This document shows positions 15,794 through 37,048 of a stretch of 64,000 bases of DNA, in pieces. Every line of letters starts with the position of its first letter. Position 1 is the stretch's first letter. A model generated the notes under the pieces. It did not search any database. It had not been told where the DNA came from and saw only the letters and a program-made list of their open reading frames with translations. The DNA is taken from assembly GCF_001642735.1 (NCBI RefSeq), contig NZ_LWHM01000001.1, positions 186,001-250,000 on the forward strand. The letters are read 5' to 3'. The DNA is from Pseudohongiella nitratireducens. Its GTDB lineage: Bacteria > Pseudomonadota > Gammaproteobacteria > Pseudomonadales > Pseudohongiellaceae. The translations under genes and the position numbers were made by a program.

Positions 15794-17642
15794 TCTGTGG
15801 CTCCTGCTGACTCCAGATCTGGTCCAACGTCGGCTGTTTACCTCGGGTCAATTCCAAAACGGCAGCTTCAACTAACACGGCTCGATCTTTCAGGAACTGA
15901 TCAAAGTCCGCCCTCAGTCGACTCGCCAAAGGCTCTCCTTCGAGATCAGCGTAATGGGCTTTGCTGAGGCACTCGTAGGGAATAAGGTGTGATTTCAAAC
16001 GGGTACGCACCGCATCTTCATTCGACAGGTCGACCCGCTCCTTGATGTATTCCAGAGGGTCTTTTCGACCAATAATTCGGTTGGTTTTCCATGTAATCAA
16101 TGCACAGTTCAAAGCGAGATAGCTGGGAATCTCAGCCTCGGCAAGCAGCGCATCGGGGAAAATATGGTGATACTCACGCTTACGAACATTTCCGTAACTG
16201 ATCCGCTTATCGTCGGCGAAATCATTTGCACCGAAGTAACTGGAAACCGCCAAAATGCCCCGGCGTTCAATGCCGACGTTCTTTGGCCACCCAGCACTGA
16301 TAAGCGAGTCTTGATCTGCCAGCGGGTGCTCCTCTCGGTTAAAGATGGGAACCTGCTTCCAGTCAGCCTCTGTGAAGTCTCGGCGAATCAGCAATTCTTT
16401 CAGCGCCCTGAAGTCCGCGTAAGCCCGCGATGCAGCCGAGTTCTCGTACCGATCGGTGAAGAAAGCAGACCACAGATACGCCCTCAACAGCTCTTCTGCT
16501 TTGGCAACAAAATCCCCATCTTCAGGCACATGCTCGTAAGCTGCCGCCAACACCGCCAGCACAGCATTGGTGGGCAGCCTTGCCTCATCTACTACACCCT
16601 GGCTTTCTAGCAGATTGGCCATTCGCTCCAAACCAACTTCAAGCGTGCCCCAGTTATCCAGCAGGACCTGCTTGTTCATTTCGATCATTCCGCGATTATT
16701 CGGCAGCTTTTCCTGAAGCAGAGCGGATGTGGCCAGAATCAGGTTGCGGACATCCCCATAGCGCATCGCTTTGGGACAGGATTCCACCAACTCTTGTTCT
16801 AAATCGTGGAGTGAGCGTTGGGCGATGCTCTCTACTTCTGCAACGATGATGTCGTACAGGGACAGCGGTTTACTGTTGGTATTCATGTTGATGAATACCT
16901 GCAAAGCGACATCTTTACTGGTCTGTGCTGGCAGGGATAGATACGGCAAGTTGAAGTGCTTTACACGTTCCCGCAGCTCAGAAATCTGAGCCTTGAGCCT
17001 GTCTTTAACCGCGGTATACGCCTTGTACTTCTTCAGAGCCTCTGGCTCGTCATCAGCCGGTTCAAGAGACGCTGTGGCTTCGGTTATCCACTGATCCACT
17101 TCGCTGGATAGATCTTCAGGACGGAGAAGGTCAATTGGGATCAACCCCCTGTCCAAGCACTTAGCAGGCTCATCAGACCAAATGGGTCGACGGGTGCCGT
17201 TGTTCGCGGTCCAGCGATTCTGTGAGCGAATGGAAATGTCGCGCTCTTCATTCCCTTCCAGTGATTTATCAAACTCCGGAAGGTGCACGAAAAAAGTCAC
17301 CCACTCATAGTTGTTGTGCATGCTCCGCCAAAAAGCAGTCAGTCGCTGCTGTCCATCAAGCAGGTGCTGGTTGACGGTACCTGGCGAGGCGGGATCAGCC
17401 GTAGAGATATAGCGAGAAAGAAACTTCTCCTCACCGGCCACTTCCAGCGCCAAGGTAACCCCAACGGGTAAGTTGTGGATGATCGTATCCAGAAAACTCG
17501 CAACTCGATGACGATCCCAGGCCTCGTATCTCTGGAACCTAGGGAGCTTTACGTAACCATGCTGGATGTTTTGAAACCACACCCCCAAGGGACGATCTTG
17601 CGCTTTGCTGGATTGCTGCATTGCAGTATTACCGTGACTCAC
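15783..17642 (-). CDS. brxU: GmrSD/BrxU-like DUF262-DUF1524 protein (probable type IV restriction enzyme)
   Basis: About 619 residues. N-terminal DUF262 (ParB-like nucleotidase fold) with LPRFQRYEAWD near residue 35-45 and DGQQRLTAF near residue 100. C-terminal DUF1524 HNH-type nuclease region with REYHHIFPDALL, then NCALITWKTNRIIG. GmrSD and BrxU enzymes of this build cut modified phage DNA, complementing BREX, which acts on unmodified DNA. BrxU of the Escherichia fergusonii system occupies the same place between pglX and pglZ. GTG at 17642 has AGGGGG seven bases upstream and overlaps the preceding gene by 14 bases; ATG at 17621 is an alternative. The symbol is by analogy. Confidence 0.8.
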   Translation of the reverse strand: MSHGNTAMQQSSKAQDRPLGVWFQNIQHGYVKLPRFQRYEAWDRHRVASFLDTIIHNLPVGVTLALEVAGEEKFLSRYISTADPASPGTVNQHLLDGQQRLTAFWRSMHNNYEWVTFFVHLPEFDKSLEGNEERDISIRSQNRWTANNGTRRPIWSDEPAKCLDRGLIPIDLLRPEDLSSEVDQWITEATASLEPADDEPEALKKYKAYTAVKDRLKAQISELRERVKHFNLPYLSLPAQTSKDVALQVFINMNTNSKPLSLYDIIVAEVESIAQRSLHDLEQELVESCPKAMRYGDVRNLILATSALLQEKLPNNRGMIEMNKQVLLDNWGTLEVGLERMANLLESQGVVDEARLPTNAVLAVLAAAYEHVPEDGDFVAKAEELLRAYLWSAFFTDRYENSAASRAYADFRALKELLIRRDFTEADWKQVPIFNREEHPLADQDSLISAGWPKNVGIERRGILAVSSYFGANDFADDKRISYGNVRKREYHHIFPDALLAEAEIPSYLALNCALITWKTNRIIGRKDPLEYIKERVDLSNEDAVRTRLKSHLIPYECLSKAHYADLEGEPLASRLRADFDQFLKDRAVLVEAAVLELTRGKQPTLDQIWSQQEPQSDD

Positions 17643-19644
17643 TGCGCAGCCCCCTATCGTCAATCACCTCCTGGATGAGTTTTGAGATCTCAGTTTCAGA
17701 TAGATCCCGAGCCTCCCAATCTAATCTGGTTTTGCCGGTATCGTTCCCCCTACGGATGACCGGAACTTCAACCTCTTCCCAGAACAATTCCTCAACATCG
17801 TGGGCGATAGCAATGCTTCGATCTTCGGTGCATTTACGCAAAACCCGCTCGGGCCAGTAGTTCAGCGCCAGACGCGCCCAGTCGTATTCACCCTTCTCCA
17901 ACCTGTCCCAGGTTTCCTGCAAAGCTTTTTGCCATTGCTTATGGTGGAACAGAGACCAAAGAGGTGCAGCATTTATCTGAACACCATCGTTCATGCTGGG
18001 GCGGAATGTAGGTGCAACTTCCAGTAGAGTGTCACGCAGATCAGCCAGATCGTGCTCCAGGTCTTCCAGCTTTTCGAGCTCTTTCTCCTCTTGCTTGCTT
18101 CGACTACCACCTTTGATGCGCAGGCTGCCAAGATCGTCACGAACAGAATTGAGTTTGGGCTCGACAAAATCATTCACGGCCGAAAACAAAGTCTGACTAG
18201 TAAGCTCGGGATAGTAGAGCCATAGCGTGTAACTGCCGGTAGCCGTCGACAAAGGCCAGTAGATCGGAGCTTTACGGCGACTTTTGGAGTAGCGCCTCAG
18301 GTGAAAAGAGAAAAAATCCTTACGCAACCAGCGGCGAATATCCTGACTAACCGATGTACCAACAGTATCCAAAACCTGCTCGATCAGTCTGGGCAAATCA
18401 TGCTGATGCCCCTCGCCATCCACTAAGATACCCGCATGAACATGAAATGGTTCTTCACCACTGGGAAGCATACCCGGGCTTTTATCTGGGAGAGAATCAA
18501 AGGGATTTGGTTCTGGTGGGATTTGTCGTTGGCCCGTAGCTAGGCGCCAATCGAAACGGCCAAATGCAACCCCGACCGCCCAACTCAATAGACTTGTCGT
18601 CTGATCAATGGGTTTAGCACCTTCATCTCCGTCAGCTCCATCGACTATGCTACCGCCTGCGTCATTCTCGCTTATTGGGGCGTAGCTGTCCTGCAAAGCA
18701 GCTTTGTCTACATCGCTAAACCCATAGAGTTCATACGCAAGAGAATCGATATCCGTCTGAACAGATGCGAGCTCTGATTCTATGGTCGACGGGTCATACT
18801 CACTCAGTTGGATTCGCAGGGCGAACGGAAGAATAAATGCGTGTGAATTTTCTTCAATGGTGTCTAATGATCGCTTCAGGGACCATGCACGATGGGCCAT
18901 TCTCGCCAGCCTATCTTGATTCGCCACACTGAGTTCGGGTAACGGCGTTTTCTGGATCACGCCTACCTCATAAGACCTCGCTGCAGCATCCGCAGCAGCC
19001 AATTGCAGCGATACGAGCAAGCCAAAGGCCCTACTATTGGTGACAGCGCACAATGCCATAAGGTCGTCCGTAGAATTACCAGCCACGAATGCGGCAGGCC
19101 CTTTGTCAGCGAATATACAGCCTTGGGGCATGGCACGCATGCTAAGGCCGCTAGTGGTGCGCCGTGGCCAAGTGATCCCAGGGCGCAGATAAAACTGCGG
19201 ATTTTTAGCCACGAACTCCGCATTGCCGTACAGATAGGGATAACGCCTGCAAATACCAGCTTTTATTTCAGAACCATCCGTATTCCAGTAAGCCATGAGA
19301 TAAACGTCTGCGTAAAACGGCGAAAACGATCCGCCTTTCGCAAAGCCATGCCACCCGTCTCCAGGCTCCTCCCACCAAGTTCGAACAAAACGAAAGTCCT
19401 CTGCTGTGGCTAAACCTTGGCGTGCAGTACGGCCCTCAGATTCAAACGCGGGCATACGTTCAAAGGTCTGCCGGACTTCTTCACTCACCCAATAAGCAAA
19501 TGGCTTCCCTGGCACTGCATCAAAAGCTTCCGGCTCCACTTCAAAAATCCGTGCATCATCTTCACCTTTTCGCAGCTGCTGGCTTACCTCCCTCAGGGCA
19601 CTAGTTTTATCGCTTTCATCAAGGAAACGTAGGAACTGGCTCAT
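17629..19644 (-). CDS. pglX: PglX C-terminal half as a separate gene (target recognition / DUF7008-like)
   Basis: A 671-residue protein equivalent to the C-terminal half of BREX methyltransferase PglX. It opens with SQFLRFLDESDKTSALREV and PGKPFAYWVSEEVRQTFERMP, followed by a target-recognition region (CIFADKGPAAFVAGN, AFGLLVSLQL) and ends with a coiled region and DYDWARL-type NYWPERVLRKCTEDRS, typical of PglX ends. There is no SAM-binding motif; that is in the preceding gene. ATG at 19644 overlaps the upstream stop by four bases (ATGA), so reinitiation could make both chains at similar levels. It presumably associates with the N-terminal chain to form the adenine methyltransferase. Confidence 0.82.
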   Translation of the reverse strand: MSQFLRFLDESDKTSALREVSQQLRKGEDDARIFEVEPEAFDAVPGKPFAYWVSEEVRQTFERMPAFESEGRTARQGLATAEDFRFVRTWWEEPGDGWHGFAKGGSFSPFYADVYLMAYWNTDGSEIKAGICRRYPYLYGNAEFVAKNPQFYLRPGITWPRRTTSGLSMRAMPQGCIFADKGPAAFVAGNSTDDLMALCAVTNSRAFGLLVSLQLAAADAAARSYEVGVIQKTPLPELSVANQDRLARMAHRAWSLKRSLDTIEENSHAFILPFALRIQLSEYDPSTIESELASVQTDIDSLAYELYGFSDVDKAALQDSYAPISENDAGGSIVDGADGDEGAKPIDQTTSLLSWAVGVAFGRFDWRLATGQRQIPPEPNPFDSLPDKSPGMLPSGEEPFHVHAGILVDGEGHQHDLPRLIEQVLDTVGTSVSQDIRRWLRKDFFSFHLRRYSKSRRKAPIYWPLSTATGSYTLWLYYPELTSQTLFSAVNDFVEPKLNSVRDDLGSLRIKGGSRSKQEEKELEKLEDLEHDLADLRDTLLEVAPTFRPSMNDGVQINAAPLWSLFHHKQWQKALQETWDRLEKGEYDWARLALNYWPERVLRKCTEDRSIAIAHDVEELFWEEVEVPVIRRGNDTGKTRLDWEARDLSETEISKLIQEVIDDRGLRSESR

Positions 19645-21563
19645 GATTGTTTCTCCAAAACGTAGGCAGCTGCCTCCACCATCGCATCATCCATCACCCC
19701 GTATCCCAAGTCCGCCAAAACTTCTGGCTTCGCATTTAACAGCACAACGTGCTCACGCCATTTCTGGAAACTAGATAGAAAAAAGCATGTGCGTGAGGTA
19801 ATAGCCCCCAAGCGGCCGGATTTTCGAAGTAGCTCCACGCCTCGTTCAACAAATACGGCCAGAAGATCGTTTTTGCTATTTGGGTATATCTTTCCAATCT
19901 TTGTTTTGGTGTTGCTCGATAACGCTCCAAATGGCGGATTCATCACCACCACATCAAAAACTTCACGAGTTAAGTCAATCAGTCTCAGTCCCTGCAGTGC
20001 ATCCAACGCAAACAGCTGACTTTGATAGTTGCTACTTACCTGTTCAGTGAAGTTGATCAACGCATTGCGTAAACGGTACTCAGCTTGATTCCAAACCTCC
20101 TGTTCTTGTTCCGCAAAAAGATCATTTCCACTCCCTCCATAAACTTGCTTTATCAACTTGGGCAGCTCCCGCTCCACCTGCAGCAACACTCCCAATTCAG
20201 GCAGGTTATGCAGCAGTTGCAGACTTTTCTCGAATAGCTGTCCATCCTTGGTATCCAGCTGTTCAGAAAACTGCTGGCGCAGTTCTTTTTCGGCAGGTGG
20301 CGCAATGGCCGCCACTACATGGCCTTGGCCAATGATGGGGCGTTGCTGCGCTTTTACATCGGCATCGTGCCAAGCACGCTGGGCTCGAAGCCACAGCGCC
20401 AGGGTGGCTATCTGGGCAGCACGGGGGTCAATATCCACTCCGTAGATGTTATGTTCGATTATCAGACGCGGAACATCCCTCAGGTAGGCAATTTCATCTT
20501 CGTAAGTCTGACTTAAGGGCTTTAACCCCATATCCGGCTGAGTGGAGACATCTAGACTGCCGGGGCCTTGCTGGTGTTCCCAAGCCCATGCTTCACGGTA
20601 GATCTCCAAGAAAAGGTCAAAGGCATAGAGACCAAAATGCATGGAGCCACAGGCGGGGTCTAGCAGTTTGAGCGTACGCGGGTCACGCAGGGTGCACGGT
20701 GCCGGTTCGCCTCGTTTGGCTTCCAATTCTTCCGGCTTCACTAGCAGGTATTGGCAACGGTCATATAAGCTGGTGTTGCCGTTGGTGGCATCAAACCAAA
20801 TCCGTCCAAGGGTGTTATCCACCAGAAACTCCACCACGTAGCGCGGGGTGAAGAACTGATTGCGCACCGCCAGTTCACGACTGTTACGTGGAGCCTGCGA
20901 CTCCTTGCGCATTTTTTTGCGCTCTTCCTGGGAGTTGAAGTACTGGTAGATCCAGCCGATGGTTTCGTCTTCCGCCCAGAGGTGTTCTATATCTGGATGG
21001 TTGATCTGTTCAAGAACTTCCAACAACGTGCCTTCACGAGGGAAAAGTCGCCCTTGTGGGCTATGCCTATCGAATAACACAGCCATGTCTAGGGCAAACT
21101 CGTCAAACAGGCTGAACAGATAGCTAATATAGGCATCCCCCGTTTCACCGTGGGCTGTGCTCGCCAGGGAGCGATAGAGCTGAAATCCCTTTGAATTCTG
21201 CCCTTGGGCTATCGATTCAATCAGAAATCCACGTGCTTCCGCCATTCGGAGGGCTGCAAGTCGGTTCAGGACTGTGAACGCCTGCTCTCTCACGATACGC
21301 TCCAGGGCTTGTTTTTTTCGCCCCGCCTCGTCCTTACCTGGAGTCGCTGCAACGTAGTGTGCCAACATCTCCCTTAATAATTGGGCAGTCTGACGCTGTC
21401 GGTTATCCAGATGCGTAAGCTCATCCAGCTCCGCAACGTGCCCCGTGCTTGGGTCTAAGCCATAGAGAGATTGAAACTGTCGGGTCAGTTCTTCGCTTAA
21501 AGATACTCGGCAGTTGGTGACAAACTTCTGGAGCCGGCCCCGGGTGCTTTGATCAAACGCCAT
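19641..21563 (-). CDS. pglX: BREX adenine methyltransferase PglX, N-terminal half (catalytic)
   Basis: A 640-residue chain with the catalytic part of PglX, the N6-adenine methyltransferase that marks self DNA in BREX. Visible are an N-terminal helical region, the FTPRYVVEFLVDNTLGR segment near residue 235, SAM motif I LLDPACGSMHFGL near 315, a motif near 390 (NIYGVDIDPRAAQIA) and the catalytic NPPFG near 545. It stops after YGVMDDAMVEAAAYVLEKQS, precisely where ordinary PglX proteins of about 1200 residues continue into the recognition region. Start ATG at 21563 lies three bases after brxC. Either a natural gene split or the result of an indel. Confidence 0.85.
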   Translation of the reverse strand: MAFDQSTRGRLQKFVTNCRVSLSEELTRQFQSLYGLDPSTGHVAELDELTHLDNRQRQTAQLLREMLAHYVAATPGKDEAGRKKQALERIVREQAFTVLNRLAALRMAEARGFLIESIAQGQNSKGFQLYRSLASTAHGETGDAYISYLFSLFDEFALDMAVLFDRHSPQGRLFPREGTLLEVLEQINHPDIEHLWAEDETIGWIYQYFNSQEERKKMRKESQAPRNSRELAVRNQFFTPRYVVEFLVDNTLGRIWFDATNGNTSLYDRCQYLLVKPEELEAKRGEPAPCTLRDPRTLKLLDPACGSMHFGLYAFDLFLEIYREAWAWEHQQGPGSLDVSTQPDMGLKPLSQTYEDEIAYLRDVPRLIIEHNIYGVDIDPRAAQIATLALWLRAQRAWHDADVKAQQRPIIGQGHVVAAIAPPAEKELRQQFSEQLDTKDGQLFEKSLQLLHNLPELGVLLQVERELPKLIKQVYGGSGNDLFAEQEQEVWNQAEYRLRNALINFTEQVSSNYQSQLFALDALQGLRLIDLTREVFDVVVMNPPFGALSSNTKTKIGKIYPNSKNDLLAVFVERGVELLRKSGRLGAITSRTCFFLSSFQKWREHVVLLNAKPEVLADLGYGVMDDAMVEAAAYVLEKQS

Positions 21564-28813: not shown

Positions 28814-31285
28814 TTATACTGAATACAAGTATCGCTGGAAACCAACAAAGGTGTTTCTGATTTCACCAGGTTGACCTAGCTTTGTCGCCGCATCGCTTAT
28901 TGTGTTGTATTTTAATTCCAACAAGCTGCGCATCTTGTTAGGCGATAATTCTCCCACTCCATCCTGAACATATTTCTCTAGAATGAAGTCAATAAACTCG
29001 CGTTGTTTGTAATCTGAGTAGGCCTGAAAAATTGATGGTCTGGCTTCTTTTACGCGCTCGATCCGAGTATGTATTTCTGTAGCGTAAGCTACGTAAGCCA
29101 GGACATCGTAGACATCACTGTCTTTGGCATCGATCAGGTCTTTCATCCCTTCAAGTTTGTCTTCGTCATAACCTGCTTCTGCTAAGTCTTCGAGAAGTTT
29201 TTCACGGGTTGTTGGGTCGCTCCAGATCCGACGGAGCTGTTCTTCGTCAGAGAAAAATTGAGGAAGGTCGTCAAACATACGCTGGAGGAATTCTCTGGCC
29301 GTAATGGGTCTGCCTTCGGGACTCCAGTACATGGCAGAGTAGATATGTTTAATCTGTCTTGCCTTGCCATCTGACAGCTGAATAACAACTTTCTTTTCGC
29401 ACACGCAGGGGCGTTGCCCGCAATCTAAACAAGGCTCAGGTGGTGGCTTTTCACAAGAGCAGTGGCTATTTTCGCAAACGGAGCAAACACCTTCTTCCGT
29501 GCCCCCTTTTTCACATTGACAAGGGCTCTTACCACAACGCTGACAAATGACAGGCTGATCTTCTGGTGGCAATGGTTCACCATCCCAGTCAGGGTCAGCG
29601 AAATTGTAATGCGCTTTCACAAAATCGTAGATGGTGAAATAGTCTTTGCCCTCATACATTCGCGTGCCGCGGCCAATGATTTGCTTGAACTCGATCATGT
29701 TGTTACACGGTCGCATCAGCACAATATTGCGCACATTGCGAGCATCCACGCCCGTCGAAAGTTTACGAGAGGTCGTCAGGACGGTCGGGATCGTTTTTTC
29801 GTTGTCCTGAAAAGTCTTCAGGTCATTCTCACCGGACACACCGTCATTAGCGGTCACTCGGACACAGTAACCGGGATTGCTCGTCCAGCCTTTTTCGACA
29901 GCATATTGATTGATGAAATCTCTGACGATACCTGCGTGCTCCTGGGTGGCACAGAACACAATGGTTTTTTCATGAGGATTAAACCGATCCATCCAGTAGT
30001 GGACTCGCATTTTCTCCCGTTCAGGGATGGTAATAATGCGATTGAAATCGGCTTCTTTATACACTCTACCTGGCTCTGGCTCGCCTTTGACGACCAGACC
30101 GTCACCGGGAGTATAAATGTATTCGTCCATCGTACCGACGATGGGCAGCACCTTGAACGGAGTCAGGAAGCCATCGTTAATCCCATCTTTCAGTGCATAG
30201 CTGTATACGGGCTCACCAAAGTAAGCGTAAGTGTCGGCGTTAACGGTGCGCTTCGGGGTAGCGGTTAACCCCAGTTGTACCGCCGGGGAGAAGTAGTTAA
30301 GTATTTCACGCCAGGTACTTTCGTCATTGGCGCCACCGCGATGACATTCATCAACAATAATAAAGTCGAAAAAGTCACTCGGATAATCACCGAAATAGGG
30401 AGAGGGATTGCCATCTGCATCCGTACCGGACATAAAGGTCTGAAAGATCGTGAAGAACACACTGGCATTCTTGGGAACTGACCCTTTCTTTTTTATCTCA
30501 CCCGGCTCCAGTCGCACAATAGCATCTTCACCAAAGGGGCCAAAGTCGTTAAAGGCTTGATTCGCTAACACGTTGCGGTCGGCCAGAAACAAGATACGCG
30601 GGCGTTTTTTGGCGGCATCGGGTTGGCGCTGTGCGCTTAGGCTCCAGCGGCTGTGGAACAGTTTCCAGGCCATCTGAAACGCGATACAGGTTTTGCCAGT
30701 ACCCGTCGCCAGGGTGAGCAGGATACGTTGTTTTCCCTGAGCGATAGCCTCCAGGGCATTATTAATAGCGTTTTCCTGATAGTAACGGGGCTGCCAATCG
30801 CCTTTGCATTCAAAGGGGATTTGGGCGAAACGCTCACGCCAGACGGCAGCAAAGTCGGGCTCGGGCTGTTCACCACCAGGCCTCTGGACAGGATCAAAAG
30901 TCAGTTGCCAGAGCTGATCCGGGCCCAGGAACTGTTCGACCAGCTTTTCCTCGCCGGTGAGCATATCCATCTGATAGATATCGTGACCGTTGGTGGCATA
31001 GCCAAAACGGCACTGCAGACGCAGGGCGTACTCTTTGGCCTGCCGCACCCCCTCGGTATAGCTCAGGCTCTCTTTTTTCGCCTCAATCGCCGCCAGTTTG
31101 CGGCCCTGATATTCCAGTACATAGTCGCTGCTTAATGCCGAAGCGCGTTTGCCGCCGCCGATAATCCTGCCCTGGGTAATACTGACCTCACGGCGGATAT
31201 AGCTGTTCTCCACCTTGCCCCAGCCAGCATCGACCAGCTTGGGGTCAATGAGGTTGGCTCTGGTGTCCGCTTCGTTCATGGTCAT
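28814..31285 (-). CDS. hsdR: Type I restriction enzyme R subunit (HsdR), with Cys-knuckle repeats
   Basis: An 823-residue HsdR, the ATP-dependent translocase and nuclease of a type I R-M complex. The N-terminal RecB-like nuclease has D54, E68-x-K70 and Q82-x3-Y86. The SF2 motor has LLTLATGTGKT near residue 195, DECHRGG near 310 and GLTATPKRT near 335, with the C-terminal motor motifs QIIGRGTRMYEGKD near 535. Around residues 579-630 are three tandem Cys4 units (C-x2-C-x4-C-x-C-E-K). It is separated from the upstream fic gene by 160 bases that contain a palindromic operator, so it may be transcribed separately from hsdM-hsdS. A second ATG at 31279 is an alternative start. Confidence 0.93.
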   Translation of the reverse strand: MTMNEADTRANLIDPKLVDAGWGKVENSYIRREVSITQGRIIGGGKRASALSSDYVLEYQGRKLAAIEAKKESLSYTEGVRQAKEYALRLQCRFGYATNGHDIYQMDMLTGEEKLVEQFLGPDQLWQLTFDPVQRPGGEQPEPDFAAVWRERFAQIPFECKGDWQPRYYQENAINNALEAIAQGKQRILLTLATGTGKTCIAFQMAWKLFHSRWSLSAQRQPDAAKKRPRILFLADRNVLANQAFNDFGPFGEDAIVRLEPGEIKKKGSVPKNASVFFTIFQTFMSGTDADGNPSPYFGDYPSDFFDFIIVDECHRGGANDESTWREILNYFSPAVQLGLTATPKRTVNADTYAYFGEPVYSYALKDGINDGFLTPFKVLPIVGTMDEYIYTPGDGLVVKGEPEPGRVYKEADFNRIITIPEREKMRVHYWMDRFNPHEKTIVFCATQEHAGIVRDFINQYAVEKGWTSNPGYCVRVTANDGVSGENDLKTFQDNEKTIPTVLTTSRKLSTGVDARNVRNIVLMRPCNNMIEFKQIIGRGTRMYEGKDYFTIYDFVKAHYNFADPDWDGEPLPPEDQPVICQRCGKSPCQCEKGGTEEGVCSVCENSHCSCEKPPPEPCLDCGQRPCVCEKKVVIQLSDGKARQIKHIYSAMYWSPEGRPITAREFLQRMFDDLPQFFSDEEQLRRIWSDPTTREKLLEDLAEAGYDEDKLEGMKDLIDAKDSDVYDVLAYVAYATEIHTRIERVKEARPSIFQAYSDYKQREFIDFILEKYVQDGVGELSPNKMRSLLELKYNTISDAATKLGQPGEIRNTFVGFQRYLYSV

Positions 31286-31380
31286 AATTGCCTATTACTT
31301 ATGCCGCTCAAGTTAGAGCATACTTACACAGAATCTCTCATATGTATGGACGGCTGGCTTAATCTCACATATAAAATTCT

Positions 31381-31413
31381 ATATGTAAAGTTTTGAGCCG
31401 CATCTTTACATAT
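31381..31413. promoter_or_regulatory. Inverted-repeat operator upstream of hsdR
   Basis: ATATGTAAAG at 31381-31390 is repeated in perfect inversion as CTTTACATAT at 31404-31413 with a 13-base spacer. Further partial copies (CATATGTATG at 31340, GTATGTAAG near 31422) lie around it. It sits between the end of the upstream fic gene and the start of full-length hsdR, about 96 bases before hsdR. The adjacent Fic protein has a winged-helix C-terminus and is the obvious candidate to bind it (inference). Confidence 0.6.
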
Positions 31414-31445
31414 GGAGTGTTGTATGTAAGCCTGCTCTCCTTAAT

Positions 31446-32597
31446 TTACGAAGTAAATAACTCCAGATACCTATCAAAGAAGAATACCCGGTTTCGCTGA
31501 TACCCCGTTACTTCTACTAATACGCCGTCGGTGACAAGTTTTTTCAATAAGGAGGAAGCCGTCTGATGACTAACTCCCAATAGCGCTGCGGCATCGTTGG
31601 CCGTAATCGCCGGGCGACGGTATAAGTGTTTTAGTAAGGTTTGCGCATTCTCCGCACGCTTACCATAAGCAAACAGTAAGCTATCCATCTCTCGGCGTAA
31701 GCGCAAAATCGACTCGAAGGTTTGCTTGCCATTATTCGCGGTTTCTATCACTGCCTGGAGAAAAAACTTCACCCAATGCAGCACATCATTAGATTCGCGC
31801 ACCCGTGTCAACGCATCGTAATAGCTGCCACGATTGCGTTCGAAAAAGTCTGACAAATACAGGGAGGGCTTGCGTAGCAAGCCTTTATTGACCAAATACA
31901 GCGTAATTAACAAACGGCCAATCCGCCCGTTGCCATCCAGAAACGGGTGAATTGTTTCAAATTGATAGTGACTAAGCGCAATGCGGATCAGCTCGGGTAC
32001 ATGGATGTGCTCATTGTGCCAGAACAGCTCCAAATCGCCCATTAATTCTGGCACCAAACCCTGGCGGGGAGGGATAAAGGCCGCGTCTTTTAACCCGCTG
32101 CCGCCAATCCAGTTTTGGCTTACACGAAAATCACCCGGGGTTTTATTTTCGCCGCGCACGCCCTGCATCAAAATTTCGTGAGTACGTTTTAGCAGGCGAT
32201 TGGATAACGGCAGGGTTTCCAGCTCAACGATTGCCTCGTTAATGGCCTGCACATAGTTGCGCACCTCTGCCCAGTCGTCGCGCTTTTCCGGTGCCAGTTG
32301 CTCGGCCTCCAGCACGGCTTCATCCATTTGCGTTTGTGTGCCCTCGATACGCGACGAGGTGTTGGCCTCTTTGGTGATGTGCATCTGAATAAACAGATCA
32401 ACATCTGGCACAATCAGAGTAAAGGCATCCAACTCCGCCAGCGCACGGGATGCCTGTTCCAGCAATGTATTTATTAAGGGGTCTTCCCAATACCATTCGC
32501 GATTAATTCGCGTCGGGGCAAAGCTTTTGTATTGGTATTGCTGGACTCGCTGCCCGGACTTGAATTCTTCGAATTTGATGGGGGCAAGCACATTCAT
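31446..32597 (-). CDS. Fic-family protein with winged-helix C-terminus (first copy, inside the hsd locus)
   Basis: A 383-residue Fic protein; this family usually transfers AMP to target proteins. The inhibitory helix motif S-x3-E-G occurs as SSRIEG near residue 80, marking an N-terminally autoinhibited (class II) Fic. The active loop is HPFLDGNGRIGR near residue 210. Residues about 320-383 form a winged helix (RPAITANDAAALLGVSHQTA, LVTDGVLVEV). The start ATG at 32597 forms TAATG with the stop of the truncated hsdR copy, so it is translationally coupled to hsdM-hsdS-hsdR'. It ends 160 bases before full hsdR. Likely role: regulator or toxin-like modifier linked to the R-M system (inference). 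Confidence 0.87.
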   Translation of the reverse strand: MNVLAPIKFEEFKSGQRVQQYQYKSFAPTRINREWYWEDPLINTLLEQASRALAELDAFTLIVPDVDLFIQMHITKEANTSSRIEGTQTQMDEAVLEAEQLAPEKRDDWAEVRNYVQAINEAIVELETLPLSNRLLKRTHEILMQGVRGENKTPGDFRVSQNWIGGSGLKDAAFIPPRQGLVPELMGDLELFWHNEHIHVPELIRIALSHYQFETIHPFLDGNGRIGRLLITLYLVNKGLLRKPSLYLSDFFERNRGSYYDALTRVRESNDVLHWVKFFLQAVIETANNGKQTFESILRLRREMDSLLFAYGKRAENAQTLLKHLYRRPAITANDAAALLGVSHQTASSLLKKLVTDGVLVEVTGYQRNRVFFFDRYLELFTS

Positions 32598-32974
32598 TAG
32601 AGAACGACCTCTCTGCATTTCCGGGGCACATTAGCGAATAGCGAATCCAATTGGAAAATATTGTGACCGCTGGTGGCATGCCCAAACCGGCACTGCAAAC
32701 GCTGGGCGTAGTCCTTAGCCTGACGCACCCCTTCGGTATAGCTCAGACTCTCTTTTTTCGCCTCAATCGCCGCGAGCTTTCGGCCTTGATATTCCAGTAC
32801 ATAGTCGCTACTTAATGCCGAAGCGCGTTTCCCGCCGCCGATGATGCGTCCCTGGGTAATAGTGACCTCGCGACGGATATAGCTGTTTTCCACCTTGCCC
32901 CAGCCAGCACCGACCAGCTTGGGCTCGATCAGATCGGCTCGAGTATCGGTTTCGTTGCGGCTCTCATGCGTCAT
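32597..32974 (-). CDS. Truncated second HsdR copy: stand-alone N-terminal nuclease fragment
   Basis: A 125-residue ORF. Residues about 7-112 are 88 percent identical (my count, 13 differences in about 106) to the N-terminus of the full HsdR at 28814-31285. The nuclease residues Asp57, Glu71-x-Lys73 and Gln85-x3-Tyr89 are all kept; the motor is absent. A short unrelated tail of about 13 residues ends in CREVVL. Its ATG forms TAATG with the hsdS stop, where hsdR normally begins, and its stop forms TAATG with fic. It may be the relic of the original hsdR, displaced by a fic-hsdR insertion, or a retained functional fragment. Confidence 0.75.
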   Translation of the reverse strand: MTHESRNETDTRADLIEPKLVGAGWGKVENSYIRREVTITQGRIIGGGKRASALSSDYVLEYQGRKLAAIEAKKESLSYTEGVRQAKDYAQRLQCRFGHATSGHNIFQLDSLFANVPRKCREVVL

Positions 32975-34203
32975 TAGGCGGCAGCCTCTCCCATATTTTT
33001 AGTTAATTCACCCGAAAAGGCTTTTTGGAGTAGAGACTTTTTCAGCGTATCTAACTCGAGCAATTTATTCTGATAAATAGATTCGAGATTCCCTATTTCA
33101 CTCTCCATTAATTCTATAGATCGAACCACGCTCTTTTGTTTTTGTAACGCTGGATACGTAATTAGGAATTTCCTTACCGACTTAACGTTAAGGTTTGGAA
33201 CTCCAGAACTTGTAATGCTTGATCGAGCTAGCGATTTTATTTGCGGTGAATTAAGTAAATATTTTAAATAGTAGCTATCGAGCTTGGCTTCAATCGGCTG
33301 AATCAATGTAAGGCTGACATATACACTAAATTCAAATTCATGTTCAACCACCGCAGCCTCTCCAAAACCTGCACCTACGCGAGAGTATAAAATATCTCCC
33401 TTTTTGGGCATATTTTTCTTAGTCAGCTTTGCATGGAGATCCTTGGAAATATGCCTGTATTTATCCAACACTACTTTCCCTGATTTAACATTTTGTGCAG
33501 ATAAGAATGGTACTCCTTCAGACTCGTCTACATATTTCGGAGTAGCTGCAACACCGCAAGTGATTAACTCGCAAGCATCATCTAAAGCTTCTTCCACATA
33601 CCTATCCCCAATTAAACTAAACACCTGCTGCAAATAGCTTTCAAACAGTTCGCGGACGTTTCTGAGGTTTTGTTCGGTTAAAGCGCGGGCTTTGTCGATA
33701 TGGGTAAAGGCCTGGTCGAGGATGGCGACGATGCGTTTTTGTTCCTCTAGAGATGGATAAGAAATATCCATCTTTTTAAGATGGGAAGGACCAACATTTT
33801 TAATAGCCGTGCCAGTGGAATGGCCCAGAAGTTCATCTATGAATAAATCTGTCTTAAAGTAGTAATAAACAAATTTTGGGTCTAAATCAGGTGTGAGCGA
33901 TTTGAATCGAACAACGCTCGTATTCATAAGCAATGGCAGGTCAGCTTCTTTCACTATCGCTGAGCGACCAATGGTCCCAGAAATAGTGTATAGGATGTCG
34001 CCTTCATCGACCTGAAAGTGCTTCCACTTGGTAGTAGCTAGCTCCATGCTCGCGCATCTTGCGCTGGACATATCAATATATCCATCCTGGACACACCTCA
34101 CATTTATCATGGGGTAGCCATTCTCTTCGTATTCATATTTTCGAATACCAGGCCCCTCTTGAATGAACAAAACATCAGGTAACTTCTGCGTTATCCAACT
34201 CAC
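32974..34203 (-). CDS. hsdS: Type I restriction specificity subunit (HsdS)
   Basis: A 409-residue specificity subunit with two target recognition domains (about 1-150 and 200-355), each followed by a conserved helical spacer. The first spacer is LEEQKRIVAILDQAFTHIDKARALTEQNLRNVRELFESYLQQVF; the second contains NKLLELDTLKKSLLQKAFSGEL near the C-terminus. HsdS recognises the bipartite DNA target and holds HsdM and HsdR. It starts with GTG at 34203, sharing one base with the hsdM stop (TAGTG). TRDs are the variable part of the locus and cannot be assigned a sequence here. Confidence 0.93.
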   Translation of the reverse strand: MSWITQKLPDVLFIQEGPGIRKYEYEENGYPMINVRCVQDGYIDMSSARCASMELATTKWKHFQVDEGDILYTISGTIGRSAIVKEADLPLLMNTSVVRFKSLTPDLDPKFVYYYFKTDLFIDELLGHSTGTAIKNVGPSHLKKMDISYPSLEEQKRIVAILDQAFTHIDKARALTEQNLRNVRELFESYLQQVFSLIGDRYVEEALDDACELITCGVAATPKYVDESEGVPFLSAQNVKSGKVVLDKYRHISKDLHAKLTKKNMPKKGDILYSRVGAGFGEAAVVEHEFEFSVYVSLTLIQPIEAKLDSYYLKYLLNSPQIKSLARSSITSSGVPNLNVKSVRKFLITYPALQKQKSVVRSIELMESEIGNLESIYQNKLLELDTLKKSLLQKAFSGELTKNMGEAAA

Positions 34204-35669
34204 TACACCAGCTCCTGAATCTTGCCCAATATCGCCTCACTCTCTTTATCCAGAGCAATAATCTCAGCAATGATCTCCTTAGGCTCGCGCAGCTCGACCT
34301 CCTCCTTGCTATTAGGATTTTTCACCGACAGATCCCAGGTGGCCTGATCCAGATCCGCCACATTAAGCGACCAGGATTTATCCGAATCCTCAAAGCCTTT
34401 CTGCAATTCAACAAACTCTTGCAAATCCTTGTCATTGAGCGGATTGGTTTTACCCAAACTGCGACCAGGATCAAGCTGGTAGTACCAGATTTTTTGCGTC
34501 GGTTCGCCTTTGGTAAAAAACAGCACCACGGTTTTTACCCCCGCGCCGAGGAAGGTTTTGGCGGGGCAGTCGAGCACAGTGTGCAGATTGTGGTTTTGCA
34601 GTAGCTCTTTTCTGAGGGCAATGGCAGCGTTATCGGTATTACTTAAAAAAGTGTTTTTGATCACAATGGCAGCGCGGCCACCAGGCTTAAGGGCCTTCAT
34701 AAAATGCTGCAGAAACAGGAAGGCGGTTTCGCCTGTTTTAATGGGGAAGTTCTGCTGGACCTCTTTGCGCTCTTTGCCGCCAAAAGGGGGATTGGCCAGG
34801 ATTATATCGTGCTGTTGGCTTGGCTGTATGTCCTGCAGGTTCTCCGCCAGGGTGTTGGTGTGGATCACGTTAGGGGTTTCGATGCCGTGCAGAATCATAT
34901 TCATGATAGCGATGACATAGGCCAGGGATTTCTTCTCCTTGGCGTAGAAGGTGCGCTCCTGCAGCGTTTTGAGATCTTTGGTGGACAGTTTCTTTTGCGC
35001 TCTGCCACCCTGCCTGAGGTAGTCGTAGGCCTCGCAGAGGAAGCCCGCTGAGCCTGCGGCACCGTCGTAGATGGTCTCGCCGATCTTGGGCTGGATAACG
35101 TCGATCATGGCGCGGATCAGGGGACGCGGTGTGTAGTATTCGCCACCGTTGCGCCCGGCATTGCCCATGTTTTTGATTTTGGTTTCGTAGAGGTGGCTGA
35201 GCTCGTGCTTTTCTTCCTGGGAGCGAAAGCGCAGTTCGTCGACTTTTTCGAGGGCATCTCGCAATGAGTAGCCGCTCTGAATCTTGTTTTTGATCTCACC
35301 AAAGATCTCACCAATTTTGTATTCAATGGTGTCTGGGCTGTCCGCGCTTTTCTTGAACCCCTTCAGGTAGGGAAATAGTTCGCCATCGACGTAGTCAATC
35401 AGGTCAGAGCCAGTCAGCGCGTTATTGTGGTCGAAATTGCCGTTCGCGTCTTTAGGGGCCGCCCAACGGCTCCAGCGGTGTTCTGGGGCAATGATGTACT
35501 GATATTCCCTGCCTTCAAGTTCCGCGTTGAATTTTCGGTCTTGTTCAAAGTCATCAAGGTACTTAAGGAATAGCATCCAGCTGGTTTGCTCCGTGTAATC
35601 GAGCTCACTGGAGCATCCAGCATCTTTCCACAGGACGTCGTCTATCGCTTTAAAAGTTTGTTCGAACAT
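34203..35669 (-). CDS. hsdM: Type I modification methyltransferase (HsdM)
   Basis: A 488-residue N6-adenine methyltransferase subunit. The N-terminal helical domain carries DYTEQTSWMLFLKYLDDFE, the catalytic domain opens with GGEYYTPRPLIRAMI, motif I YDGAAGSAGFL lies near residue 205 and the catalytic NPPFGGKER near 295. With HsdS it methylates the recognition site and protects host DNA. It is the first hsd gene, 60 bases after fic2 on the same strand, and reads directly into hsdS. Confidence 0.94.
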   Translation of the reverse strand: MFEQTFKAIDDVLWKDAGCSSELDYTEQTSWMLFLKYLDDFEQDRKFNAELEGREYQYIIAPEHRWSRWAAPKDANGNFDHNNALTGSDLIDYVDGELFPYLKGFKKSADSPDTIEYKIGEIFGEIKNKIQSGYSLRDALEKVDELRFRSQEEKHELSHLYETKIKNMGNAGRNGGEYYTPRPLIRAMIDVIQPKIGETIYDGAAGSAGFLCEAYDYLRQGGRAQKKLSTKDLKTLQERTFYAKEKKSLAYVIAIMNMILHGIETPNVIHTNTLAENLQDIQPSQQHDIILANPPFGGKERKEVQQNFPIKTGETAFLFLQHFMKALKPGGRAAIVIKNTFLSNTDNAAIALRKELLQNHNLHTVLDCPAKTFLGAGVKTVVLFFTKGEPTQKIWYYQLDPGRSLGKTNPLNDKDLQEFVELQKGFEDSDKSWSLNVADLDQATWDLSVKNPNSKEEVELREPKEIIAEIIALDKESEAILGKIQELV

Positions 35670-35729: not shown

Positions 35730-36836
35730 TTATTCATACGGCTTAAATTCATTGTGATCCACCGTCACCAGTTGAATCAACTTTGGATGAATATACAGCC
35801 GCTCTCTACCCGCCTGCTGTTCTACCAACACACCAATACCCACCAGCTTTTTTAGATATTCCGAAGCTGTCTGACGTTTGGCGATACCTGCGTCTACCAG
35901 GTTGCTAATGCGGCAGCAGGGTTGCTCAAAGATCGTATCAACCAGTTCGCGGCTATAAATTTTCGGCAACTGCGCTCGCACATAATCCGCCGTACGGTCA
36001 GACAGGGCACGGATGCTGAGTATCTTTTGTGTGGTCCATTTTGCCGTGCTTTCAACCGCATCAAGCATATACAGCAACCAGGGTTCCCAGGCTTGCTCTT
36101 TGGTCACGGCTAACAGGCCACTATAGTACTGGCCTTTGCTGGCAATGATATAGCGGCTCAAATACAGAATAGGCAGCGACAGCAGCTCCTCTTGCACCAA
36201 ATACAAAATATTGAGGATTCGCCCTGTACGGCCATTACCATCAGTGAACGGATGAATCGCCTCAAACTGGTAGTGCATCACGGCCATACGAATCAGTGGA
36301 TCGAGATCAGGTTGCTTGTGCAAAAAACTTTCCCAGTTACTCAACAGGTCTCGCAACACCTTTTCACCAGCCGGCGGTGTAGAAATGATTTCACCCGTGT
36401 GATCATTAGCCAGCGCAGTGCCTGGTACTTTCCGCACCGCCATGTCGACACCTTTGATCTGACTGCAGATCGATTCAACCATATTGGTATTAATGGGACG
36501 GTTGGCCAATGTTTGCCAACCTTCATATAGCGCGCTGCGATAGCGAAGTGCTTCTTTCGTGGCAGGGTCCGCATGCGCCTCATCACTACCGGCATACTGG
36601 AAAAGCTTATCGGTGGTGGTGACAATGTTTTCGATTTCTGAGCTGTCTTTGGCTTCCAGGATAGGCAAGGTGTTAATCAGCATAGCCTGATTAGGGATAA
36701 GCGCTGCCGCTTGCTTGAGCTCAGCAAGGGCGGCCCGGGCAGAAATACAGCGTTTAAGCACGGTCTTGGTTTCCAGCTCAACGCCTGGGGGTAGCAAAGG
36801 AAGGTCGTTATACGGCTTTTCAGGATGCCAGTTCAT
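35730..36836 (-). CDS. Fic-family protein with winged-helix C-terminus (second copy, upstream of hsdM)
   Basis: A 368-residue Fic protein. The inhibitory motif is SSEIEN near residue 68 (S-x3-E-N), and the active-site loop HPFTDGNGRTGR is near residue 195. The C-terminal 70 residues form a winged helix (RISNLVDAGIAKRQTASEYLKKL, GIGVLVEQQAGRERLY). It differs strongly from the other Fic in this locus. Five copies of an ATCGACA motif lie just upstream of its start, indicating autoregulation. It precedes hsdM by 60 bases and may share its transcript. Confidence 0.88.
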   Translation of the reverse strand: MNWHPEKPYNDLPLLPPGVELETKTVLKRCISARAALAELKQAAALIPNQAMLINTLPILEAKDSSEIENIVTTTDKLFQYAGSDEAHADPATKEALRYRSALYEGWQTLANRPINTNMVESICSQIKGVDMAVRKVPGTALANDHTGEIISTPPAGEKVLRDLLSNWESFLHKQPDLDPLIRMAVMHYQFEAIHPFTDGNGRTGRILNILYLVQEELLSLPILYLSRYIIASKGQYYSGLLAVTKEQAWEPWLLYMLDAVESTAKWTTQKILSIRALSDRTADYVRAQLPKIYSRELVDTIFEQPCCRISNLVDAGIAKRQTASEYLKKLVGIGVLVEQQAGRERLYIHPKLIQLVTVDHNEFKPYE

Positions 36837-36857
36837 ATCTTTATAAATTTTAATTTT

Positions 36858-36934
36858 ATCGACATGATTTGAGCTTATGTCGATAGTATCGACACGTCAA
36901 GAATATATGTCGATATTTTCCAAATAATCGACAT
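36858..36934. promoter_or_regulatory. Five-copy TGTCGAT / ATCGACA operator array upstream of fic2
   Basis: The heptamer occurs in alternating orientation: ATCGACAT at 36858, ATGTCGAT at 36877, ATCGACA at 36888, ATGTCGAT at 36907 and ATCGACAT at 36927. The middle pair forms a palindrome with 8-base arms around one central base (36878-36894). The outer pair has ten-base arms (36905-36936). It covers the 20-100 bases upstream of the fic2 start codon, the expected place for promoter control. Binding by the Fic winged helix is inference. Confidence 0.75.
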
Positions 36935-37048
36935 ATACCCTTCTACCTGCTCAATAATGGCTTCTATTGAGTATCTCACTCAGGCCATGATCTTTCTCAA
37001 AAACCCTCACCGGTAGTCCAGTAACCGTGCAATCTCTCAGATCCTCAG

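What the first reader, a model, noticed from the sequence alone, without database searches (positions are those of the whole stretch)
31381..32597. Fic gene and palindromic operator inserted between hsdS and hsdR
A Fic protein with a winged helix is coupled to the methylase-specificity genes, and a 33-base inverted repeat follows it, directly before hsdR. This would let a DNA-binding Fic protein delay or limit nuclease expression until methylation is complete, as C proteins do in type II systems. Control of a type I nuclease by a Fic-winged-helix protein would be new to me.
Basis: inference. Interest (0 to 1): 0.75.

Follow-up and report, generated by a model that had tools for sequence, protein, structure and literature searches.

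The report
Fic regulator with hsdR operator array
A Fic enzyme gene sits in a DNA-restriction operon next to a row of matching DNA sites in front of the nuclease gene, and comparison with related loci indicates that the Fic protein binds those sites and so probably controls the nuclease.

Summary
fic2 (31446-32597, - strand) encodes a SoFic-like Fic protein with a C-terminal winged helix. The 33-base repeat is the linker between two of three tandem 24-bp operators (TTACATA-N10-TATGTAA), 41 bp apart, in the fic-hsdR gap. Among 44 related fic loci such an array follows fic in 35, against 1 of 44 in a control region. Operator sequence and Fic recognition helix change together: 19 of 19 HQ-helix rows have TACATA half-sites, 2 of 23 others, and the HQ label needs 4 changes on the Fic tree. 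Among 38 testable HsdR orthologues an array precedes hsdR in 5 of 5 with a winged-helix Fic directly upstream, and in 2 of the other 33. So Fic2 very probably binds this array and probably regulates hsdR. Repression is the likelier sign, from a published Fic repressor and promoter-like elements inside relatives' operators; a C-protein-like delay is not shown. An hsdR 5' stub upstream of fic2 looks like a scar of cassette exchange. Fic repressors and a type I repressor (RptR) are published; eight literature searches listed no such arrangement.

The parts
31446..32597 (-). fic2: SoFic-like Fic protein with Fic_N, Fic motif HPFLDGNGRIGR, internal inhibitory motif SSRIEG and C-terminal winged helix; ORF is open from 32618, probable start 32597
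31554..31571 (-). codons for S-H-Q-T-A-S (ORF residues 350-355), start of the predicted recognition helix (351-363)
31406..31429 (.). operator 1, TTACATA-N10-TATGTAA, 0 mismatches; centre 132.5 nt before hsdR ATG
31365..31388 (.). operator 2, 1 mismatch; centre 91.5 nt before hsdR ATG
31324..31347 (.). operator 3, 2 mismatches; centre 50.5 nt before hsdR ATG
28814..31285 (-). hsdR, EcoAI/FtnUII-type HsdR (NF046051, 778.8 bits, cut-off 550)
32597..32974 (-). hsdR 5' stub (125-aa ORF, about 110 aa HsdR-like); its ATG overlaps the hsdS stop (TAATG) and its stop overlaps the fic2 ATG (TAATG)
32974..34203 (-). hsdS
34203..35669 (-). hsdM
35730..36836 (-). fic1, true SoFic by model (NF046030, 626.9 bits, cut-off 550)
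36857..36915 (.). two tandem palindromes TATCGACAT-N11-ATGTCGATA, 30 bp apart, directly upstream of fic1 (a second, different Fic operator set, inferred)

Best explanation
Fic2 is a dual-function protein: an autoinhibited class II AMPylase whose C-terminal winged helix binds, probably as a dimer on each palindrome, a tandem array of three operators spaced about four helical turns apart. In this operon the array fills the gap between fic2 and hsdR and so most likely covers the hsdR promoter region. fic2 is the last of a chain of overlapping genes (hsdM-hsdS-stub-fic2), so its level should follow that of the methylase. Bound Fic2 most likely represses hsdR (and may block read-through from upstream), keeping the nuclease subunit scarce relative to HsdM/HsdS. 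SHOWN by computation: array, spacing, link to fic, co-change of operator and recognition helix, link to hsdR position. INFERRED: binding itself, dimer use, effect on hsdR, sign (repression), any coupling to AMPylation. My odds: about 0.9 for binding, 0.75 for regulation of hsdR, 0.6 that the sign is repression given regulation; the stated confidence is for binding plus regulation of hsdR.
For: Array directly downstream of fic in 35 of 44 loci (z>3) against 1 of 44 in the region 220-470 nt further on. A free search without selection puts the best spacing at 40-41 bp in 32 of 44, against 1 of 39 in the control region. TACATA half-sites in 19 of 19 loci with an [ST]HQ helix and 2 of 23 others; matching TACATA dyads in 8 of 19 and 0 of 23. 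On the tree of Fic bodies the HQ label needs 4 changes, 3 of them forced by well-supported branches: L046 (THQTAS, TACATA) lies in a 14-row clade (100/100) of 12 Campylobacterota and 2 Neisseriaceae-labelled rows, its 13 other rows without HQ; L021/L022 (S[SL]TAAT, GGATA) are grouped with L008 (SHQAAS, TACATA) at 100/99; L010/L045 (THTAAN, GCATA) are nested among HQ rows. L160, fetched later, has SHQVAN and TTACATA operators. The helix residues fall at the start of helix 351-363 of the model, whose best fold match is SoFic. HsdR orthologues: array in 5 of 5 with a winged-helix Fic directly upstream, 2 of the other 33. FicX, 31-37% identical to Fic1/Fic2, holds the same slot with another motif. 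By eye, L096 and L077 have a -35-like hexamer inside an operator upstream of fic; L026 and L028 have TATAAT in the last operator 25-26 nt before the next gene. CccR, a Fic plus HTH protein, represses its own promoter through palindromes near -35/-10 (PMC9755527, passages).
Against: No binding was measured. No convincing sigma-70 promoter was found in the window's gap, so the hsdR start and the sign are unknown; strong distal and weak proximal sites would also fit activation. At least eight loci keep an array at z>3 although no same-strand restriction gene was found after fic (L010, L014, L017, L022, L034, L036, L037, L038; L009 looks like a ninth but shows a broken hsdR start by eye). In L032, L049 and L043 the array is upstream of fic. 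The partial Mantel test of helix against whole 20-base profile was not significant (325 of 2000 permutations as high). A blind motif search in viral contigs gave 2 loci, neither near Fic, neither with the TT flank. L176 has a FicX-type array but no Fic next to it. L046's gene is broken, in a MAG, and on a long branch. L045's array is weak (z 2.0). The loci are related and some sets hold near-copies.
Confidence: 0.72

Rival explanations
1. C-protein-like activator or dual switch: Fic2 fills the two strong distal sites first and activates a weak hsdR promoter, then fills the weak proximal site and represses, so that HsdR appears only after HsdM/HsdS/Fic2 have accumulated.
For: Operators have 0, 1 and 2 mismatches going towards hsdR, with centres 132.5, 91.5 and 50.5 nt before the ATG. 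No good sigma-70 promoter in the gap. For Type IB EcoAI pre-expressed hsdR kills a recipient of the other genes (PMC12707154, passage), so delay would pay.
Against: Promoter-like elements lie inside operators of some relatives, and CccR is a repressor. The weak-proximal pattern was not tested across loci.
Confidence: 0.2
2. Pure Fic autoregulation: the array serves fic itself (or transcription across it), and hsdR is only a bystander that follows.
For: Arrays persist next to fic without hsdR. In a more distant set the array is upstream of fic in 24 of 92 loci (z>3) against 4 of 89 in the control; that set holds near-copies.
Against: In the operon form fic overlaps hsdS (TAATG in L006) and the upstream region shows no array, while the array sits in a gap of 97-436 nt before the next gene in the 23 loci listed. 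In HsdR orthologues without a visible Fic of this kind, the gap to the previous ORF is 33 nt or less in 24 of 29 measured (after moving L170 and L179 to the Fic group).
Confidence: 0.15
3. The array acts as RNA: hairpins forming a terminator, attenuator or antitoxin-like RNA that Fic2 binds.
For: Tandem palindromes could fold in the transcript; the repeat length resembles type III antitoxin repeats (recalled).
Against: No terminator-like site listed on the - strand between 31286 and 31445, no Rfam match there at gathering score. The 40-41 bp spacing and co-change with a winged-helix recognition helix fit double-stranded DNA. The RNA was not folded.
Confidence: 0.04
4. Fic2 is a toxin or defence gene that uses the hsdS-hsdR slot as a landing place and acts on HsdR or other proteins by AMPylation, without regulating hsdR.
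For: Fic motif intact in 42 of 42 rows and inhibitory motif in 39 of 42, the other three being partial rows. PADLOC model SoFic matches (399.5 bits); Sofic is reported to defend by AMPylation (PMC12249575, abstract start and passages). The slot hosts DarTG2 in an E. coli island (PMC12255303, passages).
Against: Does not explain the array or its co-change with the recognition helix. It can be true together with the best explanation.
Confidence: 0.15

Closest known systems
SoFic / SO_4266 (3eqx, 3zcn), class II Fic with C-terminal winged helix
   Same: fold (TM 0.70-0.76), Fic motif, inhibitory motif, C-terminal winged helix
   Different: 26-28% identity in the fold match; Fic2 scores 165.9 against the NF046030 cut-off of 550, so it is not SoFic itself. 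A 2023 paper says DNA binding by SoFic had not been shown to date (PMC10628234, passage)
CccR of Yersinia pseudotuberculosis (PMC9755527, abstract and passages)
   Same: Fic plus DNA-binding domain and palindromic sites; repression shown there, by analogy here
   Different: CccR represses its own promoter and is a secreted effector; Fic2's array lies 3' of fic, before hsdR, as three sites 41 bp apart
CbFic2 (PMC10628234, abstract and passages)
   Same: Fic with C-terminal HTH; DNA binding proposed to switch AMPylation to deAMPylation
   Different: described as a host-directed effector; no operon or operator array in the passages seen
RptR, repressor of type I R-M islands (PMC12255303, abstract and passages)
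   Same: repressor tied to type I R-M, three tandem sites; that island also has accessory genes between hsdS and hsdR
   Different: small protein with no mention of Fic (0 occurrences); 6-bp palindromes in the promoter of the whole island, not in front of hsdR alone
C (controller) proteins of type II R-M (recalled)
   Same: regulator encoded within the R-M operon, tandem palindromes of unequal strength
   Different: no Fic domain; type II; positive control of R is not shown here

Membership tests
Class II Fic AMPylase (SoFic-like) | Fic motif HPFxDGNGRxxR | tested here: met
   HPFLDGNGRIGR; 42 of 42 rows
Class II Fic AMPylase (SoFic-like) | inhibitory (S/T)xxxE(G/N) N-terminal to the Fic motif | tested here: met
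   SSRIEG at 88-93; S88, E92, G93 invariant in 16 aligned; 39 of 42, three partial rows lacking it
Class II Fic AMPylase (SoFic-like) | AMPylation activity | not testable with these tools
   no assay
SoFic proper (NF046030) | score above curated cut-off 550 | tested here: not met
   Fic2 165.9 bits (Fic1, upstream of hsdM, 626.9)
Winged-helix transcription factor | winged helix whose operator co-changes with the recognition helix | tested here: met
   19 of 19 HQ rows with TACATA, 2 of 23 others; HQ label needs 4 changes on the tree, 3 forced; but partial Mantel on whole profiles not significant
Winged-helix transcription factor | binding to the operator | not testable with these tools
   EMSA or footprint needed
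C (controller) protein of R-M systems | small HTH protein of the C-protein type (recalled definition) | tested here: not met
   Fic_N + Fic + MarR_2, 383-390 aa
C (controller) protein of R-M systems | activates the R gene after a delay | not testable with these tools
   sign of regulation unknown
Type I R-M, EcoAI/FtnUII type (IB) | hsdM, hsdS, hsdR with HsdR of that type | tested here: met
   HsdR NF046051 778.8 bits against cut-off 550; HsdM PDLC03021; HsdS Methylase_S

The most novel reading that the evidence does not exclude
The array is the switch of the enzyme as well as of the gene: Fic2 dimers held on the hsdR operators are AMPylation-silent (as DNA binding is proposed to redirect CbFic2), and loss of occupancy, for example when a phage alters or degrades host DNA, both derepresses hsdR and frees an AMPylating Fic2, so that restriction and abortive infection are fired by one DNA-bound guard. 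This would be a cassette that moves between type I operons and other helicase-nuclease loci.
Probability: 0.12. Interest if true: 0.88.

Novelty: new variant of a known kind. Interest (0 to 1): 0.7.

Why it matters
[quoted passage not shown] If right, a mobile cassette (fic plus operator array) puts hsdR alone under an AMPylase-repressor that is made together with the methylase. The helix-operator pairs (HQ with TTACATA, KPT with TTTACTA or TTAACTA, TAAT with GGATA) are ready-made swap experiments, and the arrangement allows a direct test of whether Fic enzyme activity is gated by operator DNA.

Tried and rejected
Rejected: the 31381-31413 repeat as the operator itself (it is the linker register between operators 1 and 2). 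Rejected: a terminator or known RNA element. Inconclusive: promoter scoring in the gap (matrices recalled from memory). Negative: partial Mantel test on whole 20-base profiles, perhaps because weak arrays entered in the wrong register. Negative: blind array search in viral contigs, two loci without a Fic match; both lack the TT flank. Phage records hold only relatives under 60% identity (35 records, 12 listed, two of these annotated MloA); a paper search for mloA gave one unrelated paper. Literature: eight searches answered; one search listed 20 of 43 papers and 15 of 38. In the listings and passages that I saw there is no Fic-operator-hsdR system.

Counting notes: the script tally itself reads 3 of 5 with a Fic motif upstream and 4 of 33 without. 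I regrouped: L170 and L179 moved to the Fic group because only the C-terminal end of their Fic lies in the stretch held; L187 (Fic, no winged helix seen by eye) and L189 (Fic with another HTH) moved out. The Fisher value for helix against motif used 22 instead of 23 other rows, so I cite counts only; rows are related and no p-value is claimed. L157, L158 and L159 repeat L007, L009 and L023, and L139 appears to repeat L020; none is counted as new evidence, though L139 is in the totals. L039, L047 and L051-L054 (fic cut or broken) were left out of the array counts. L044 was left out of the tree. The downstream Pfam tally was given 34 of 43 neighbours; nine on the opposite strand were left out. 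The upstream tally was given 37 of 41.

Full report
WHAT IS THERE. The - strand carries fic1 (36836-35730), hsdM (35669-34203), hsdS (34203-32974), a 125-aa hsdR 5' stub (32974-32597), fic2 (32597-31446; ORF open from 32618), a gap of 160 nt, and hsdR (31285-28814). hsdS and stub, and stub and fic2, overlap by TAATG. A BREX set (BrxE, A, B, C, PglX in two pieces, PglZ, BrxL) follows at 27082-11174. Fic2 has Fic_N, Fic and a MarR-type winged helix. Its best-scoring solved relatives include SoFic. The AlphaFold2 model (mean pLDDT 77) has a helix at 351-363 in the winged helix, taken here as the recognition helix, and matches SoFic best.

THE REPEAT. The better description is three operators TTACATA-N10-TATGTAA at 31406-31429, 31365-31388 and 31324-31347, with 0, 1 and 2 mismatches, 41 bp apart. 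Single matches are at chance level: 4 places in the genome against 7 for the backward control. The two-operator pattern is found at this place only, in none of the other 368 class genomes, with no backward match in the own genome.

THE ARRAY GOES WITH FIC. A scan with the Fic2 protein gave 49 loci. After the fic stop many show tandem palindromes. A score tested against dinucleotide shuffles gave z>3 in 35 of 44 loci downstream (43 loci plus the window), 1 of 44 in the next 250 nt, and 4 of 43 upstream. Three of the four upstream cases (L032, L049, L043) lack the downstream array. That score looked only at spacings of 39.5-41.5 bp. A free search from 22 to 65 bp, all 44 loci, has its best spacing at 40-41 bp in 32, against 1 of 39 in the control region. 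In a more distant set (94 loci fetched from viral contigs and class genomes, 93 with a usable match, near-copies among them) the array is upstream of fic in 24 of 92, downstream in 12 of 92, with 4 of 89 in the control.

RECOGNITION HELIX AND OPERATOR CHANGE TOGETHER. Rows with [ST]HQ at the helix start carry TACATA half-sites: 19 of 19, against 2 of 23 other rows (L021 with 2, L034 with 1); matching TACATA dyads occur in 8 of 19 and 0 of 23. SKPTAN rows carry TTTACTA or TTAACTA, AK/TK rows GAACTA, S[SL]TAAT rows GGATA, THTAAN rows GCATA (the longer forms read by eye). On the tree of Fic bodies without the winged helix the HQ label needs 4 changes, 3 forced by well-supported branches. L046 (THQTAS, TACATA) lies in a 14-row clade whose other 13 rows lack HQ; L021/L022 group with L008; L010/L045 lie among HQ rows. 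L046 is on a long branch and its gene is broken, and the L010/L045 arrays are weak next to fic, which weakens those cases. L160, fetched afterwards, has SHQVAN and TTACATA operators. Against this, a partial Mantel test on whole 20-base profiles was not significant (325 of 2000).

LINK TO hsdR. The gene after fic matched HSDR_N in 15 of the 34 neighbours scanned (the window's own included) and ResIII in 22 of 34; nine opposite-strand neighbours were not scanned. The gene before fic matched Methylase_S in 11 of 37. Six loci (L027, L029, L030, L033, L035, L040) have a similar helicase gene after fic instead (DEAD/ResIII confirmed singly for L027 and L035). The reverse test starts from HsdR: 14 of 390 order genomes and 27 of 369 class genomes have an orthologue at E<=1e-200, the own genome being in both. 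That is 40 loci, 38 with a testable start. A winged-helix Fic directly upstream is visible in 5 (L167 own, L168; L170, L171, L179 with FicX), and all 5 have an array. Of the other 33, L176 has a FicX-type array behind an hsdR 5' stub but no Fic match between hsdS and hsdR, and L194 reaches z 3.5 (1 of 60 shuffles; the previous ORF ends 8 nt before hsdR, so the stretch is probably coding). L187 has a Fic with no winged helix seen and L189 a Fic with another HTH, both close to or overlapping hsdR, and neither has an array. Without a Fic of this kind hsdR usually follows the previous ORF closely (33 nt or less in 24 of 29 measured). The script's own grouping was different (3 of 5, 4 of 33); the regrouping is explained in Tried and rejected.

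HISTORY. In L006 the hsdS stop overlaps the fic ATG by TAATG; in the window the hsdS stop overlaps the stub ATG in the same way. The stub is 86% identical to the window's hsdR and 80% to that of L169, whose slot holds another gene. hsdR pieces also lie near L008, L170/L208 and L176/L207. I read the stub as the start of a resident hsdR left behind when a fic-array-hsdR cassette recombined in; a local duplication is not excluded. None of the five genus mates in the order sample has a Fic2 match at E<=1e-130, so acquisition is likely.

HOW IT MOST LIKELY WORKS. Binding of the array by Fic2 is strongly indicated. Regulation of hsdR follows from position and from the HsdR-based test. Repression is preferred: CccR represses through palindromes near -35/-10, L096 and L077 show a -35-like hexamer within an operator (by eye), and L026 and L028 have TATAAT in the last operator. 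The window's gap shows no clear promoter, so an activating or dual role remains open. The intact Fic and inhibitory motifs suggest that the enzyme is kept. CbFic2, whose activity is reported to change on DNA binding, makes DNA gating of AMPylation worth testing.

KNOWN OR NEW. Fic-HTH autorepression (CccR), DNA-responsive Fic (CbFic2), a repressor of type I islands (RptR) and accessory genes between hsdS and hsdR (DarTG2) are published (abstracts and passages seen, not whole texts). A Fic-operator array in front of hsdR did not appear in what eight searches of the open-access library listed; that library lacks most subscription papers and preprints. I file it as a new variant of a known kind.

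Noticed in passing
window 36857-36942: fic1 (SoFic) has its own tandem palindromes TATCGACAT-N11-ATGTCGATA, 30 bp apart, directly upstream, so one type I operon holds two Fic genes with different putative operators.
   Followed up: partly
window 32597-32974: The hsdR stub is an intact ORF with part of the HSDR_N region and TAATG overlaps on both sides; it might be made as a small protein.
   Followed up: partly
window 17629-21563: BREX PglX is split into two overlapping ORFs (640 and 671 aa) matching the two halves of a 1332-aa model.
   Followed up: no
window 15783-17663: 626-aa ORF between PglX and PglZ with only weak N-terminal matches to PDC-M55C and HEC-05 models.
   Followed up: no
L027:9267-12333 and L033:9247-12328: After fic and its array lies a two-gene unit, a 640-aa helicase plus a 387/388-aa protein; the L027 pair has no PADLOC 2023 match at 1e-10. 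It may be an undescribed defence pair under Fic control.
   Followed up: partly
L209:4005-4985 (- strand of the locus): A 327-aa ORF with a Doc-like HPFSDGNKRSG stretch (RhuM-like by eye) occupies the hsdS-hsdR slot in a locus without the Fic array.
   Followed up: no
L154:10174-10234: Tandem CGACATAT..ACATATGTACG repeats of about 40 bp in a viral contig with no match to the window's Fic proteins in the locus.
   Followed up: no
own genome C28, C9, C19 (L003, L004, L005): Three further Fic-type matches in the same genome, distant from Fic2 (23-28% identity).
   Followed up: no
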